Shown here: in pieces, positions 5,798-47,786 of the stretch | Position numbering within the stretch: the stretch's first letter is position 1 | How the letters are laid out: each line of letters begins with the position of its first letter | From: Seiridium cupressi | Lineage: Eukaryota > Ascomycota > Sordariomycetes > Amphisphaeriales > Sporocadaceae | Reading direction: 5' to 3' | DNA: 64,000 bases | Assembly: GCA_036674765.1 (NCBI GenBank) | Contig: JARVKI010000012.1 | Location: 601,741-665,740, forward strand | Notes under the pieces: model-generated | Told to the model about the DNA's origin: nothing | The model's database searches: none | The model's input: only the letters and a program-made list of their open reading frames with translations | Made by a program: the position numbers and the translations under genes

Positions 5798-7692
5798 ATG
5801 GCGCATGTCTCGGATTCCGAGCATCACAAGCGGAAACGACACGATGACGACAATGGGGCCAAGCCTCACTCCGATCGCATCCCGCAGCCCCCGCCACCTC
5901 AGTCAGGTACGTCGCCCTGTGTAGCAGGCATTTCCCACCAGAACTCCGGGAGGCAAAGCTATTGGCTGGAATTGTGTATCTATATGTCCCAACGTCTCAT
6001 TCCATCTCATGTTCCTGTCCTGTCCGTGACTGGAAATCTGTGCATCAGCGTAGCATGTCATCTCCGTGCTCGACATCATCCATCTTCGCTCGCGTTGCTG
6101 CTCCATGTCTCAGATTACTGACCGCAATTTAAGGCAATCAAACCCCGATCAACTACTTGGCAAGAAACAATGTTGGGAAACTCAAGCTGATCCATGGTGA
6201 CACGGAAACATTTTCCGACGTGCTCACGCTTATCAACGAATATGAAGGTACTACCAATCTAGACCAGCTTCGTATGCATGCCAGCTAACCGGTCTCAGGG
6301 GTCCTGAGTCGGCATGAAAGTTTTGCTTCAAATCTGGGCGCAAAACTCATGGGGCCACGTCTACTGAAGGCGATGGAGGTGATTTTCGAGGGGCCCATCA
6401 TGACTAGCCCTGCTCAAAATGCCATGAGTTCGGACCCGATAACCTGGCTTGACGTAGTCGAGTTTGCTAAGGCGAGGCCGGGCGATTTCAACCTAGCGAC
6501 CACGTCCAACGGCACCCGTTGCTGTCAATTCTTTTTGAAAGGTGTGCAAGCTGAAATCTCAGAAGACGATTGGAGGGTCATCGTCTCGGGCACACTTGAC
6601 AGAAACCGCTTGATTCCACCACAGCCACTCGAGGAGGATGAAACGGCCGAGCTTGCCACTCTCGAGATACTGGAACAGCGCCTGAAGGTCCTAATCAAGA
6701 AAGCAGATGAGGTGGCGGGTAAGGCACGTCAACTCAACTATCACCTGAGCGGTCGTAAAGCAGCTATCAGCAGTCGCCGGCCGCCCCAGCACGGTGCATC
6801 ATCAGGATCTGGCTTCCAGGCAGTAAACCAACCTGGCTTGCCCGCTAGCTCAAACCATCACGGTTATGACTTGCACGCGGATCTTCTTCAACAATTTCTC
6901 GCTCACAACCCGGCCAACCGCCTCCCGTCCATCAGTTCTGTGCCCCCAACTCCGGGGACTTTGGCTACAGCGATATCGACACCGCGGACATCCATTCAAC
7001 AGCAAGTGCTGACATCAATTAGCAATCGCCCATCTCCTGGGATCTATCCTTTAGAGTCTGGGTTGCGGGACCCAGATGACGAGCACCGTGCTCTTGTGAC
7101 GGCGAAGGTCGAGAAGTTATCTCGAGGAGACGAGATACTGCCTCCGTGCGACAGGTGTAGAAGACTAAAGACGGCGTGTATCAAACACTTGACAGCATGC
7201 CAGGGGTGCACTAAGAAGCATGCTAGATGTGTATGGAAGGGGCTCACCAAGGAAGAGGTCGCATGGCTGAAGCAGGAGGCCGGGGATAGCGATGACGGCG
7301 GAGACGAGAGCCGGGAACGCGGTCCCAGTAGCCACTCAGCGCCCAGCTCGTCGCAGGACCCGAACGAGCCTAGGCGCGACTCAGACCGCAGCGACGATCC
7401 TGGGCCAAGCAGGTCACAGTCACGAATAGCGATTGGTAGGAGCGCCGAAGACATTTGGAGGATGGGCACGAGCTCTATTAGTCGTCGGGCCTCTATGGAC
7501 ATTGACGTCGACCCTCGAGATACGCACAATCTCCGTCCTACCCCCACCAATATGGACCATTCGAGTCAACAAGACCTGCGGTCGCGAGACCCGGTGCTAT
7601 TGAGCCGCATAGCTACGACGGCCTCCGCCGCTAACGCAGACGGCAGCAGTGTCCCTTCAAGAAGCGGTGGAGGAGGACAGGGCGGACTCTAG
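5798..7692 (+). CDS. fungal regulatory-type protein with C-terminal Zn2Cys6 cluster
   Basis: The model has three exons, 5798-5906, 6134-6247 and 6299-7692, giving 538 aa. Introns are 227 and 51 bp (GTACGT...AAG, GTACTA...CAG) and the reading phase is kept across both. Residues about 37-190 form a well-structured, probably helical N-terminal region (for example NYLARNNVGKLKLIHGD) ending in a coiled-coil-like stretch (EILEQRLKVLIKKADEV). A long Ser/Pro-rich linker follows. At about residues 357-384 there is a perfect Zn2Cys6 pattern, C-x2-C-x6-C-x6-C-x2-C-x6-C (CDRCRRLKTAC...CQGCTKKHARC). The tail is acidic and disordered. Gal4-type clusters normally sit near the N-terminus and precede a fungal_trans domain, which I cannot see here. 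DNA binding is a reasonable inference, but the target and pathway are unknown. The 5' exon is short and basic (HKRKRH), so the AAG acceptor deserves transcript support. Confidence 0.85.
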
Positions 7693-8349: not shown

Positions 8350-8499
8350 TCATTGGTAGGAATAGTTGTTATCATAAGATGGCATGTAATTGTAGCCTTG
8401 ATTAGCATATAGTTGGTTCTGGTTCTGGTTCCATGGAGGCTGTTGTTGCAGAGGCCGCGCATTCTCCTGGAGCTGCTGCTGCACAGTCTGGGCATTCTG
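8350..8499 (-). other. in-frame 49-codon extension after the PAN3 stop codon
   Basis: Directly after the PAN3 TAG (8500-8502) the same frame continues as CAG AAT GCC and stays open for 49 sense codons to a TGA at 8350-8352. The predicted peptide is rich in Gln, Asn and Tyr (QTVQQQLQEN, then QPPWNQNQNQLY, then GYNYMPSYDNNYSYQ) and looks like a low-complexity protein tail rather than UTR. It could be translated by readthrough, represent a lost C-terminus cut off by a recent TAG, or be joined by splicing out the TAG. See the findings for tests. Confidence 0.5.
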
Positions 8500-11400
8500 C
8501 TAGAATGCGCCGCGCGACGGCGCCACAGGTTTGGCCTGGCCGGCCTTCTGGAGCTCCTGGAAGGCATTGGTGACCTGCTTCTTCAGCTCCTTGTACGTGA
8601 CTACAAAAGCAGTCTGGTGGTCGCGACTGGTCAGATAAACCTTCTCATCAATGCCAGCATCGAGTTTATTGAGGCACGAGAGCATGTGGCCCAGGTTAAG
8701 TACCGGGTTGTTGTTGGCATCGACCTGGTGGAAGACATAGTCCCGGAAAAGCTTGAGCGTGTAGCGCTCGCCGTTCTCAGACCAGTTCGGATCATTGTCA
8801 AACTCGGGTCGCTCATTGATGGTCCCGAGCTTCAGCACGAGACGGGCAACCCTGCCGTTCTCAAGCGATTTGTTCAACTCGGAGGTGAGGTCGTCCGAGG
8901 CACGAAGCGATGCATCGAACGAATCAAATAGGTGGTGCGCAATAGACTGTGAGAGGAAGCCAATCGTCTTCTGGTCGGCAGCCTCAGCGGGCGGGGTTGT
9001 GATAAGCCAGAGAACAAGATCTTTGAGCTCATCGGAATAGTTCGTCTGCTGGAAGGTCTGCCAAGAGATCTGAGCGTTGTGGATGTGACTCTGGTTCAAA
9101 CATAGGCTCAGTACAAGTTTGCCAAGGTCTACCAGATCTTCATGTTGAAGCTCCGCCACAGGTCGAGGTGCGTCAAATTCCAAGACGTCCAAAATCATAC
9201 AAGCACTAAGCCTGATGCGATTCTGCTCCGTGAGGATGATTTTGGTAGGATGGATGCAACGCGCCGCGAGATCCCCATTATGAATGGTCCTGAGTGCGTT
9301 GCATAGTTGGGAGATATAGGTCCAGAGCAGGCTCTCTTGTATGGACGGGCGAAATCTATTGCCGCCAGACAGGTGATGCTCGGCCAAAGTCCTCGAGGAC
9401 GGATGGTAGTAGTGTATGAAGATAAGGGAAGTATCGCCAAAATCTCTGGATGTGAAGGCTTCGAGTGGTGTGACTATGCTACCGTTGTTGATTCGCTTCC
9501 ACTTTTTGAGTGGGGTATTAGTTGATTCTTTGCTACTGACTCGAGTCGCTTGAAGTCTACGCAGACAGTACACGTGGCCGTTCTTTTTCGACGTGGCTTT
9601 GTAGACCCAGCATACAGTGCTACCAAAGAGACTGTATTGGTTGTTCTTGGGGCCTTCGAGCGGTACTAGCGAGTGGTAAGGCTGGACGTCAGGCAATTGT
9701 GAATTATGTAACACTTGCCGAGCGTCTGCAGACTTTCTCTGGAGCTCCTCTCTCAAATCGTTCGACATGAAGAAGTCATGTGGCTGGCGCTGGTATGGCG
9801 TCAAATCAGACCTATGCTGTCCCACGGGCGCATATAAATGATATAGTGGTTGGAGCGGTGCTGTAAACACTCCTTGCGGTTGGTAGTAGGGCGCACCAGC
9901 CCCGGTCATCGAGGTAGGGTCTTCGGCATACGGATTGTATTGCGTGGTAGGCAGCGCTTGGTTGATCCCAGCCATGGCATAAGGATCGAATAGGGCACTG
10001 CTTGAATCACCCGCCATACCGTTGGTGGCGGAAGCGGTGTTCAAGTCATAATTCTGTGCTTGAGGCGTGAATTCACGGACACCGGCGGGATTGAGGAAGG
10101 ATGCCTCGGCATCTTGCGGAATGGCGGGGGTCGTTGCTGGTGAAACAGTTAACATAAGACAACAATGAACGTCGGGTATAGGCATATCCTACAATTTGAA
10201 GCAGCCTTGGGGGTGAAAGGCGCTGCATTGAGGGTTTGCGAAGAGAATGTGGATTTCTTGGCTCCCGATTGCAGTTGAGCGGGGGTGAAAGAGGGAGAAT
10301 CTACATTAAGCTTATTCTTGGCGCTATTAGAAATGTCAGTTAGTAGTTGGCCTCTCTCTGGCTCCATAGAGCGTGATGCTGGTTCTGCAGATTCGGTGCT
10401 TTCGGCTTCTGCCAAGGGTTGTCGCGTGAGACTGACAACCCGAAATGGCATCGCAGGGATCAAAGGTGTAGGCAGCTGGACTGGTAGAGCTTGTGGCTGC
10501 ACAATGGCAGCGGAAGGCGTATGATCCTTGTGAAGTTTTGACCATTTTTCTGCTGACGGAGAGACTGACAGCAGGGCTGTTGAAGAACTTGTGATATCTT
10601 CGTTGAAATTCAGGGATTCTAATGCTGTTTTCCGAGTCTGCTTCCGCTTTGGCAAGGTAGCGAATTTTGCAGCTGTCGAGCGGGATGGAAAACCGACCCT
10701 GTCCTCTATGTTCAAAGCTGGAGAACTGGCGGTATCATCTCTATCGTCCTGAACCCCAACACCTGCCTGGTCCTCCACGACCGGAGTGGAAGGCGGACTG
10801 TGAACCGCCGGAGAATCACGAGATTCTTCAGCGTCCCCAGAGGCAGTATCGTAAGCAGGCCGGCCCTCGTGATGAAAAACATCACTTGAAATACCACCAG
10901 CATCATGAATAGCGGGGTCGAGGGGTATGTCGCTCCAGCTCATGGTATGAAGCAGGCTCAATGTGAGGCTGTCGATTGAATATCTTCTAGCCCCTGCCTG
11001 ACGGCATGTATACAGAAGTACCAAGGCTGTGTAATGTGGTTGCGCAGTGAACATATGATTGCAGGGCCCTCGGTTATGATCCGGCGAAGCTGAGAAATAG
11101 TTGTAGTGTTTTCCAAGATCCATAGATGTGACCAGCCAAGTGTAGTGGTAGGTGTAGCAAAAACTCTCCAGGTTATCCACGGGTTTAGTTTTGCGGATTC
11201 CCACGAGCTAGCCATATAAACCTGCCCGCAATCCATCATGGTCTTTCCACTTCCGTTGCCTATCCAGTCGTAGCATCCCGTCGTCAAGCCAAGCCAAGCC
11301 AAGCCAAGCCGGAGCGGGCCATCGCAGTCACGCGCAGTCACAGTCCATGGAGATACGCTGACATGCAAGGAAACAACACTTACGAGTCTATCGTATTTGA

Positions 11401-45719: not shown

Positions 45720-47786
45720 ATGGCGGGTCACAAATTCTCAGGTTACATTATGAGCCTTTGGCAGGCGCTGTTTGCTGCCTTTACTCAAACGTTCACCCGC
45801 ATCTTTCAACTCATCTCAAGCAGCACTTCCGCTGCATCAAAGCCGCGGCCCGCAACAACCTCTGGTCAAGATTCCCCAGAATCACAAAACCCGCCCGCAT
45901 CCACTCCCACTTCCGATACGCTGCCAACCACCGCGCCGCAGCTCGACAATCCCCCAGACCTTGAGAGAGGCCAACCCCAGCAAGAAGTCGAAGCCATGGC
46001 GGCTAAGAAGCGCGGTGGTAACAAGCGTTCCAGCATCAACGGCGCTCAGCCCACCACTACCAGCAGTGCATCTAACGCCCAGCAGAGAGGCAAGGAGAAT
46101 TTGGGCTCTGAAAAGCAAATGAGCCAAGCAGTCACATCAACACCTGCGGAGAACAGGAAAACCCCTCTCGGCGCACACAGTCAAACCGGTGTGACTGATG
46201 CCAGAGATATTTCCCAGAAATATGACACCCAGAAGCCGGCCGGTACCCTGGCATCTGGCAAGAATCCTAGTCACGCCTCGTCTACCAAGCAGTTCGGCAA
46301 CGGCAGCAGCAACAACAACAAGGTGGGCGGCTTGGCTTCAGACCGGGAGACACTAGAGGTGGCTGGCTTCCAGGCGCCAGTCACAACGGCCGTCGCACCA
46401 GCCGAGCGTCAACATGAGAATCAAAAGACGGGTAGCCACATCCAAACCGGCACACAAACGCCCGACTCTGTGCCCATGTCCAGCAACGCAACCAAGAAGA
46501 ATACTGCCATGCCTTATGATGGTCAGGTCGACCAAGCCGCCGCCTCGATTGACCGGCTGACCCTTGACGATCATACTCCGGGCCCCGAGAAAGCACTCAC
46601 CAAGGATACGGCTGCTGTCGAGGCAGCCGGGGTTCCCATTGTCGTGGTCAACCCGGCTCCTGGCCAGCCACCGATTGCACTGAAGCCACTTGCTCCCTTG
46701 GTGACACCCCCTAGTCAGGTGCTGCCTGGCTTGATTGAGCCGGAAACCGAGGAGGGTAAGAGGGAACGAGCGATTCATCTCAGCTTCATGAGAGAAGCTC
46801 TGGACATGGTAGGTTCGCCCGTACAACACACCATCTATGGTATTAGCTGACCAGAGGAACCAGGGAGATTCTGCCTTGTCCATCAATGAGACGCCTGTAG
46901 GGTGTGTTCTTGTCTACAAGAACCGTATTATCGCAAAGGGCATGAACGCCACCAACATAACCCGGAATGGCACTCGCCACGCCGAGTTCATGGCGCTGTC
47001 TGCTCTGCTTTCTCACCAGCCAGACGCCGACGTCAAGGACGTTGCGATCCATGATGAGGCCTTGTGGGGCGACGTCGACGCAAGTGATGGGCACATCTAT
47101 CCTTACGGACAGAAGCTCCATCCTTCTCCCAGAGTTGACCGCGATATCATCCAAGAGTGCATTCTCTACGTGACAGTCGAGCCGTGCGTCATGTGCGCCT
47201 CACTCCTCCGCCAGCTTCGTGTCAAGAAAGTCTACTTCGGTGCGGTCAATGACAAGTTTGGCGGCACTGGAGGTGTTTTCCGAATTCATGCCAATTCAAA
47301 GGCTGTTGCCAAGCCCAATAATGACAGGCCCTACCAAAATGGCTACGGTCCCCACGAGATCGACCGTATCCAACGCGGTCGGGCGGCCGCCATGCCTCGC
47401 GAAGATGACGATGGAGACGGCGGTAATGTTGAGCCCGGTTACCTAGCTGAGGGTGGCTTTCTACGTGATGAGGCTGTTTCGCTCCTCAGACGCTTTTACG
47501 TGCAGGAGAATGGCAGAGGTAAGTTCCCCAATGATGTTCCCCCCCTTTTCCTCCGTCTCTTTTTCTTTTCTCTTTTCTTTACAACCATATCAACTGTTAC
47601 TAACTGGTTGCAGCCCCTCAGCCTCGCAAGAAGGAAGGGCGAGCTGCTAGGTTGTACGCGATGGAAAATGCAGCAGCGAATGGCGGCGTACTAATCGACG
47701 CCGATGGCAACATCCTGCCGGAATCACCAAGCGAGGATGAACCACGTTCCCTTGACGGGGATTCCACGTCAGTTCTTGCTGCTTGA
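45720..47786 (+). CDS. tad2: tRNA-specific adenosine deaminase subunit Tad2
   Basis: Tad2 is the catalytic partner of the Tad2-Tad3 heterodimer that converts A34 to inosine in tRNA anticodons. Exons 45720-46808, 46864-47518 and 47614-47786 (introns 55 and 95 bp) give 638 aa. The CMP/dCMP deaminase fold starts at the first splice join (FMREALDM|GDSALSINETPVGCVLVY). The catalytic His-Ala-Glu (about 402-404, GTRHAEFMAL) and the zinc ligands in TVEPCVMCASLLRQL (Cys 471 and 474) are intact, followed by VYFGAVNDKFGGTGGVF. I chose the acceptor at 46863 over one at 46854 because it gives the normal helix length. About 350 disordered N-terminal residues (MAGHKFSGYIMSLWQALFAA, then KKRGGNKRSS) precede the enzyme. 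An ATG near 45995 (MAAKKRGG) is an alternative start. Confidence 0.9.

What the first reader, a model, noticed from the sequence alone, without database searches (positions are those of the whole stretch)
8350..8520. PAN3 stop codon followed by a 49-codon in-frame Q/N/Y-rich extension
The PAN3 frame meets TAG at 8500-8502, then CAG AAT GCC... and stays open for 49 codons to TGA at 8350. The extension has coding-like composition: many CAG/CAA/AAC codons and a tyrosine-rich end. UAG followed by C is a permissive readthrough context. A leaky stop would add a prion-like tail to a deadenylase subunit, which could tie it to RNP granules. Alternatives are a recent nonsense mutation, or splicing out an in-frame segment ending CTAG: 27 nt from a GTGGCG donor or 75 nt from a GTCACC donor, both poor.
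Basis: partly seen in the sequence, partly recalled or inferred. Interest (0 to 1): 0.75.

Follow-up and report, generated by a model that had tools for sequence, protein, structure and literature searches.

The report
Hidden protein tail behind PAN3 stop
In this fungus (Seiridium or very close kin) the stop codon of the mRNA-decay gene PAN3 is followed in frame by 49 codons that look protein-coding, and the stop sits in an RNA hairpin of the kind that related fungi are known to edit, so a longer protein may be made by RNA editing in fruiting bodies; this is not yet shown.

Summary
PAN3 (minus strand) ends at TAG 8502-8500; 49 sense codons follow to TGA 8352-8350. Length is ordinary: 16 of 86 long ORFs have as much open frame after their stop. 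Composition is not: Q+N+Y is 59%, the only case among 115,380 overlapping open 49-codon windows in 264 kb; 0 of 5000 shuffles reach it; the 3-base periodicity ends at the TGA. The stop is ancestral: 118 of 120 listed homologs end there, so it is no recent nonsense mutation. Splicing and the readthrough contexts compared do not fit. [quoted passage not shown] It is the only one of 56 TAG-ended ORFs with a stem of 6+. Tad2 and Tad3 genes are present. Best reading: sexual-stage stop-loss editing adds a Q/N/Y-rich tail to PAN3 (confidence 0.5). No RNA and no DNA of relatives was available, so editing and conservation are untested.

The parts
8503..10136 (-). PAN3 last exon: pseudokinase and C-terminal domain, ending S-R-G-A-F (acceptor placed by eye, joins as in P0002)
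   Evidence: Pfam Pan3_PK; PDB PAN3 chain 4cyi_A E=1.3e-127; homologs; exon start
8500..8502 (-). TAG stop codon, ancestral position; A at 8501 is the candidate A-to-I editing site (UAG to UIG, read UGG, Trp)
   Evidence: homolog C-termini
8492..8508 (-). Perfect 7-bp hairpin around the stop: arms 8508-8502 and 8498-8492, loop AGC (8501-8499); if the two inner pairs open, a 7-nt loop C-U-A-G-C-A-G with the stop A at its third place
   Evidence: fold in four window sizes, plus/minus 30-nt fold, letters; background counts
8353..8499 (-). 49-codon in-frame tail QNAQTVQQQ...YNYMPSYDNNYSYQ, 59% Q/N/Y, coding-like
8350..8352 (-). TGA that ends the tail; the period-3 signal ends here
45720..47786 (+). 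Tad2 gene (tRNA A34 deaminase subunit; its F. graminearum ortholog edits mRNA). Only the deaminase part 46843-47520 was tested; gene ends and introns are by eye
   Evidence: PF00383 at 46879-47241 (C12:648619-648981); PDB tRNA adenosine deaminase 2 3dh1_A E=6.3e-27 and yeast TAD2 7bv5_A 1.6e-24; ends

Best explanation
The TAG is the true, ancestral PAN3 stop used in ordinary growth. The mRNA folds the stop into a tRNA-anticodon-like hairpin, which the Tad2-Tad3 deaminase, redirected to mRNA in fruiting bodies, can edit from UAG to UIG (read UGG, Trp). Ribosomes then add W plus 49 residues and stop at the TGA. The result is a sexual-stage PAN3 isoform with a disordered Q/N/Y-rich tail behind its C-terminal domain (which binds PAN2, general knowledge), plausibly tuning deadenylase recruitment or its partition into RNP granules. 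Shown here: the stop, the open tail, its coding-like composition, the predicted hairpin and the sequence context, the ancestral stop, genes for Tad2 and Tad3. Inferred: that editing happens in this fungus, that this A is edited, that the tail is translated, and what it does.
For: Tail composition and periodicity are those of coding sequence and are confined to stop-to-TGA. The stop is ancestral in 118 of 120 listed homologs, so a coding signature that persists behind it asks for continued translation. UAG is the stop reported to be lost by fungal editing (PMC4817773, passages). The A lies in a hairpin loop with a 7-bp stem in the plus/minus 30-nt fold used in the field (protocol). Background over 5379 TAGs in 264 kb: perfect stem of 7+ 25 of 5379; A34-like geometry with stem 5+ 18 of 5379; hairpin loop 1772, with stem 7+ 143, with stem 7+ and at least 5 of 6 preferred bases 25 of 5379. 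Only 1 of 56 TAG-ended ORFs of 150+ codons has a stem of 6+, and it is PAN3. Context: -2 C, -1 U, +1 G, +3 A, +4 G are preferred bases, +2 C is not (motif from PMC9600606, passages). Enzymes: Tad2 in this window, Tad3 on C15, three DUF726 genes, one with four FgAme1 landmark residues at the right spacing. Stop-loss editing is reported for 323 F. graminearum genes, and peptides for 15 Sordaria stop-loss events (PMC6794485, passages).
Against: No RNA-seq, peptide or relatives' DNA could be examined. The hairpin was looked for after the idea of editing arose, and at about 0.5% per TAG it is no proof. +2 C is a depleted base. The predicted loop is 3 nt, not 7. In the longer windows (46, 81, 121 nt) the energy is no lower than shuffles (z -0.93, -0.43, -0.27); only the 23-nt core stands out (z -3.4). 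No paper on A-to-I editing that names Amphisphaeriales was found (0 papers); the one naming Pestalotiopsis is a plant circRNA review (listing only); with Xylariales one listed paper holds the word (listing only). The Ame1 candidate has S-L where FgAme1 has the essential M-V, and glycine at the catalytic serine. No homolog of the tail was found in the protein collection, though tails behind stops would not be annotated. Stop-loss editing sites are rarely shared between species (PMC5381528, passages).
Confidence: 0.5

Rival explanations
1. Translational stop-codon readthrough: a fraction of ribosomes reads UAG as Gln or Tyr and adds the tail, without any change of the mRNA.
For: Same coding signature of the tail; UAG is followed by C and has the CAR half of the CAR-YYA motif (motif PMC3542737, passages).
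Against: CAG-AAU fails YYA; the strong context described for fungi is UGA CU(A), and UAG lowers it (PMC4207609, passages); -1 C and -2 U are not the A/A that favours UAG readthrough in yeast (PMC12233894, passages). Readthrough-stimulating structures typically begin about 8 nt after the stop; here the stop itself is in the hairpin, which a ribosome at the stop would have opened (inference).
Confidence: 0.2
2. A 3' UTR with low-complexity CAG/AAC repeats that happens to be open in the PAN3 frame; the tail is never translated in quantity.
For: Length is ordinary (16 of 86); part of the tail is CAG runs and an AACCAG repeat, which give period 3 by themselves; 26 of 5383 genomic 147-nt windows have as strong a period-3 signal; no homologous protein found; conservation untestable here.
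Against: The non-repeat end (codons 30-49, LYANQGYNYMPSYDNNYSYQ) is as extreme as the repeat part, 0 of 20000 shuffles in any frame; no other open window in 264 kb is like it; the signal ends at the TGA; the same gene is also the only one of 56 with a strong hairpin at its TAG.
Confidence: 0.22
3. An alternatively spliced transcript removes the stop and joins the tail to PAN3.
For: The stop reads CTAG, a possible acceptor.
Against: No GTRNG-type donor in the 250 nt before the stop, and the only CTRAY-like branch site in those 250 nt is at 8634; the codons that would be removed encode the conserved C-terminus.
Confidence: 0.04
4. A recent nonsense mutation truncated a longer PAN3, or the tail is a moved piece of another gene; it is a decaying relic.
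For: Would explain a coding-like but untranslated tail.
Against: 118 of 120 listed homologs end at the same place, including those 72-82% identical; no PAN3-sized protein with a tail relative was found; no second copy of the tail was found in the genome at protein or DNA level at E up to 10.
Confidence: 0.04

Closest known systems
Stop-loss A-to-I mRNA editing in Sordariomycetes (F. graminearum, N. crassa, S. macrospora; Tad2-Tad3-Ame1 in F. graminearum)
   Same: Canonical UAG stop, U at -1, G at +1, purines at +3/+4, A in a stable predicted hairpin loop, in-frame C-terminal extension, Sordariomycete host with Tad2 and Tad3 genes
   Different: Editing not observed here; a different order (Amphisphaeriales); the tail has a strong coding signature, whereas the review read in part says no function of a stop-loss event has been reported
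white collar 1 stop-loss extension in Sordaria macrospora (131 aa, peptide evidence; PMC6794485, passages)
   Same: Regulatory protein extended at its C-terminus behind UAG
   Different: A peptide was shown there, only sequence evidence here; different gene and tail
Fungal programmed readthrough at UGA CU(A) (peroxisomal enzymes; PMC4207609, passages)
   Same: Extension isoform behind a stop in a fungus
   Different: Different stop and 3' context; the stop here is within a hairpin; the tail ends in SYQ, not a peroxisomal PTS1-type end (by eye, general knowledge)
Tobamovirus-type UAG CARYYA readthrough (PMC3542737, passages)
   Same: UAG followed by CAG (CAR)
   Different: Next three bases AAU, not YYA

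Membership tests
Fungal stop-loss A-to-I editing site | Canonical stop is UAG | tested here: met
   canonical by homologs
Fungal stop-loss A-to-I editing site | Preferred bases at -2 to +4 | tested here: met
   5 of 6 met, including -1 U, +1 G, +3 A; +2 C is a depleted base (motif)
Fungal stop-loss A-to-I editing site | A in a stable hairpin loop in the plus/minus 30-nt fold | tested here: met
   hairpin loop, stem 7, -22.7 kcal/mol; 73 of 5379 TAGs have an equal or lower energy. Against: windows of 46-121 nt are no more stable than shuffles
Fungal stop-loss A-to-I editing site | A-to-G change in cDNA of sexual tissue | not testable with these tools
   no RNA-seq held
Fungal stop-loss A-to-I editing site | Genes for Tad2 and Tad3 | tested here: met
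   Tad2 in window; Tad3 on C15
Fungal stop-loss A-to-I editing site | Ame1 cofactor of Sordariomycete type | tested here: inconclusive
   three DUF726 genes; the C14 gene has E+15, R+17, D+58, H+98 as in FgAme1 but S-L instead of M-V and G for the catalytic S; no FgAme1 sequence was available to align
Programmed readthrough, UGA CU(A) type | UGA followed by CU | tested here: not met
   UAG CAG
Programmed readthrough, UAG CARYYA type | CARYYA after UAG | tested here: not met
   CAGAAU
Conserved readthrough or editing extension | Frame maintenance and synonymous bias of the tail in relatives | not testable with these tools
PAN3 | Pan3 pseudokinase domain | tested here: met
   PF18101, 204.5 bits
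PAN3 | N-terminal PAN3 CCCH zinc finger | tested here: met
   window 11499-11407 matches PF25586, E=3.2e-20; that it is spliced to the rest is inferred

The most novel reading that the evidence does not exclude
PAN3 carries a hidden, selected C-terminal tail that is switched on only in fruiting bodies, because its stop codon mimics a tRNA-Ala(AGC)-like anticodon loop and is edited by the tRNA deaminase Tad2-Tad3. This would be a developmentally gated prion-like isoform of a general deadenylase subunit, and an early case of a stop-loss editing event with sequence evidence that the added tail itself has been under selection.
Probability: 0.35. Interest if true: 0.75.

Novelty: new member of a known kind. 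Interest (0 to 1): 0.55.

Why it matters
Hundreds of fungal genes show stop-loss editing, but a 2024 review (PMC11156358, parts 1 and 2 of 3 read) states that there is no report on the function of such events in sexual reproduction. A tail with a strong coding signature on a conserved mRNA-decay factor would make the question 'are stop-loss tails selected?' directly testable by comparing a few Sporocadaceae genomes and one fruiting-body RNA-seq set. If the tail drives granule partition, it would link RNA editing to mRNA turnover in sexual development.

Tried and rejected
Tail homologs: PAN3-sized proteins (25 candidates, none at E up to 10) and small proteins (no candidate); these searches cannot see unannotated 3' regions and are weak for low-complexity sequence. 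Recent nonsense, relocation, splicing: rejected or weak, see rivals. Length as evidence: rejected (16 of 86). tRNA-Ala(AGC) of this genome for a direct comparison of anticodon loops: a pattern from recall found none, and none of the 20 tRNAs fetched has that anticodon, so the likeness rests on general knowledge of tRNA (U33, A34 G35 C36, purine 37). Ame1 identity: not settled. Print searches with the word PAN3; on stop-loss editing or readthrough in general; on editing in this order of fungi. None listed a PAN3 stop event. PAN3 does not occur in three main texts searched for it (PMC4817773, PMC5381528, PMC6794485); supplementary gene lists could not be read, so PAN3 may be listed there.

Full report
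What is there. On the minus strand PAN3 ends ...APSRGAF-TAG at 8502-8500, and the frame stays open for 49 codons (8499-8353) to TGA 8352-8350. The protein is PAN3 by Pfam, PDB relatives and a best hit to Seiridium cardinale PAN3 at 99% identity over 91% of the query. The genome is therefore Seiridium or very close (Sordariomycetes, Amphisphaeriales, Sporocadaceae). The window is C12:601741-665740 of a 45.4-Mb, 228-contig assembly.

Is it more than chance? Length is not evidence: among 86 largely non-overlapping ORFs of 200+ codons in 264 kb of contig C12, 16 have at least 49 open codons after their stop (7 of 46 at 300+ codons). Composition is: Q+N+Y is 0.59 in the PAN3 frame, 0.08 and 0.04 in the other two; among the listed post-stop frames of 30+ codons the next highest is 0.19; of 115,380 overlapping open 49-codon windows on both strands it is the only one at or above 0.5. 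Dinucleotide shuffles: mean 0.14, sd 0.05, 0 of 5000 in any frame (the shuffler was checked). The tail cut in three (codons 1-16, 17-29, 30-49) gives 0 of 20000 for each, so the tyrosine-rich end, which is not a simple repeat, carries the signal too. Period-3 power is 7.2 in the tail, 4.1 in the last 147 nt of the CDS and 0.95 in the 147 nt after the TGA; 26 of 5383 genomic windows reach 7.2. The simplest reading is that the tail evolved as protein-coding sequence in the PAN3 frame.

Is the stop real? The protein search gave 2,363 homologs, of which the best 120 were listed and examined; the other 2,243 were not. 118 of the 120 end at the ordinary place, 33-59 residues after the conserved TSRD motif (here 43): 117 at 33-50 and P0092 at 59 with a Q-rich linker before its RGGF end. 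The two others, P0022 (60) and P0117 (97), have unrelated annotated tails. Close relatives (S. cardinale 99%, Pestalotiopsis and Neopestalotiopsis 75-78% identical) end there as well. So the stop is ancestral, and a recent nonsense mutation is out. No protein with a relative of the tail was found, and no second copy in the genome.

How could the tail be made? Splicing: no GTRNG-type donor lies in the last 250 nt and no CTRAY branch site within 130 nt before the stop. Readthrough: UAG CAG AAU meets neither UGA CU(A) (PMC4207609, passages) nor UAG CARYYA (PMC3542737, passages), and the -1/-2 bases are not A (PMC12233894, passages). A-to-I editing: Sordariomycetes edit mRNA in fruiting bodies; in F. 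graminearum the tRNA A34 deaminase Tad2-Tad3 does it with Ame1 (PMC11087585, passages; PMC11156358, parts 1 and 2 of 3). UAG is a preferred triplet, U at -1 is the strongest feature, 62% of sites lie in predicted hairpin loops, and 323 F. graminearum genes lose their UAG stop (PMC4817773, passages; PMC9600606, passages).

The hairpin. The PAN3 stop lies in GCAUUCU-AGC-AGAAUGC (8508-8492): seven Watson-Crick pairs, the stop's U closing and its A first in the loop. It forms in all four windows folded and in the plus/minus 30-nt fold. The 23-nt core is far more stable than shuffles (-9.2 against -3.0 kcal/mol, z -3.4, 2 of 200 as good), but the longer windows are not (z -0.93, -0.43, -0.27). If the two inner pairs open, a 7-nt loop C-U-A-G-C-A-G places A where A34 lies in a tRNA, after U33; U-A-G-C-A is what a tRNA-Ala(AGC) would show (general knowledge, not confirmed from this genome). 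Among 5379 TAGs in 264 kb, PAN3 included, 25 have a perfect stem of 7+ and 18 the A34 geometry with stem 5+; a third of all (1772) are in a predicted hairpin loop, so the loop alone means little, but 143 also have a stem of 7+ and 25 combine this with at least 5 of 6 preferred bases. Among 56 TAG-ended ORFs of 150+ codons (not filtered for overlap, so not all genes) PAN3 alone has a stem of 6+. The strongest hairpin and the strange tail thus fall on the same gene. The hairpin test was made after the editing idea, so these rates are guides, not formal p-values.

Machinery. A Tad2 gene lies in this window (about 45720-47786; yeast TAD2 7bv5_A E=1.6e-24), Tad3 on C15 (7bv5_C E=1.6e-13). The DUF726 (Ame1-type) family matches at three places, C1, C14 and C18. 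Taking FgAme1 residue numbers from PMC11087585, the C14 gene has E, R, D and H at the spacing of E546, R548, D589 and H629; the C1 gene has only the E and D, the C18 gene only the D. But C14 lacks the M-V pair reported as essential and has glycine at the catalytic serine, which that paper found dispensable. Ame1 is therefore a candidate, not established.

Verdict. The tail is probably coding in origin and the stop genuine. Stop-loss A-to-I editing explains both, and the hairpin, better than readthrough; chance in a repeat-rich 3' UTR is not excluded. No RNA, peptide or relatives' DNA was at hand; two searches found no PAN3 locus in the collections allowed. Editing in Amphisphaeriales has no paper in the library searched. 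The idea is cheap to test.

Noticed in passing
window 45720-47786 (+): A Tad2 gene (tRNA A34 deaminase, whose F. graminearum ortholog edits mRNA) lies 37 kb from the candidate editing site in the same window.
   Followed up: partly
window 11699-10150 (-): PAN3 seems to have two N-termini: a first exon MATSRY... (11699) plus a PAN3-type CCCH zinc-finger exon (11499-11407, PF25586 E=3.2e-20), and, downstream of it, a 351-aa ORF that ends in the PAN3 frame; the S. cardinale model (P0002) uses the latter and has no zinc-finger match. The alignment consensus shows a shared FPSL...LP stretch there, so an alternative first exon may be real.
   Followed up: partly
G000:C14:402359-403445 (loci L026, L028): DUF726 gene with four FgAme1 landmark residues at the right spacing but glycine in place of the catalytic serine; a possible fast-evolving Ame1.
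   Followed up: partly
protein P0092 (C-terminus): A PAN3 homolog with a Q-rich insertion inside the ordinary C-terminus, before its RGGF end: Q-rich PAN3 tails may also be encoded openly elsewhere.
   Followed up: no
window 6349-7692 (+): 447-aa ORF convergent with PAN3, with a weak Zn(2)-Cys(6) cluster match (17.9 bits, below the cut-off).
   Followed up: no
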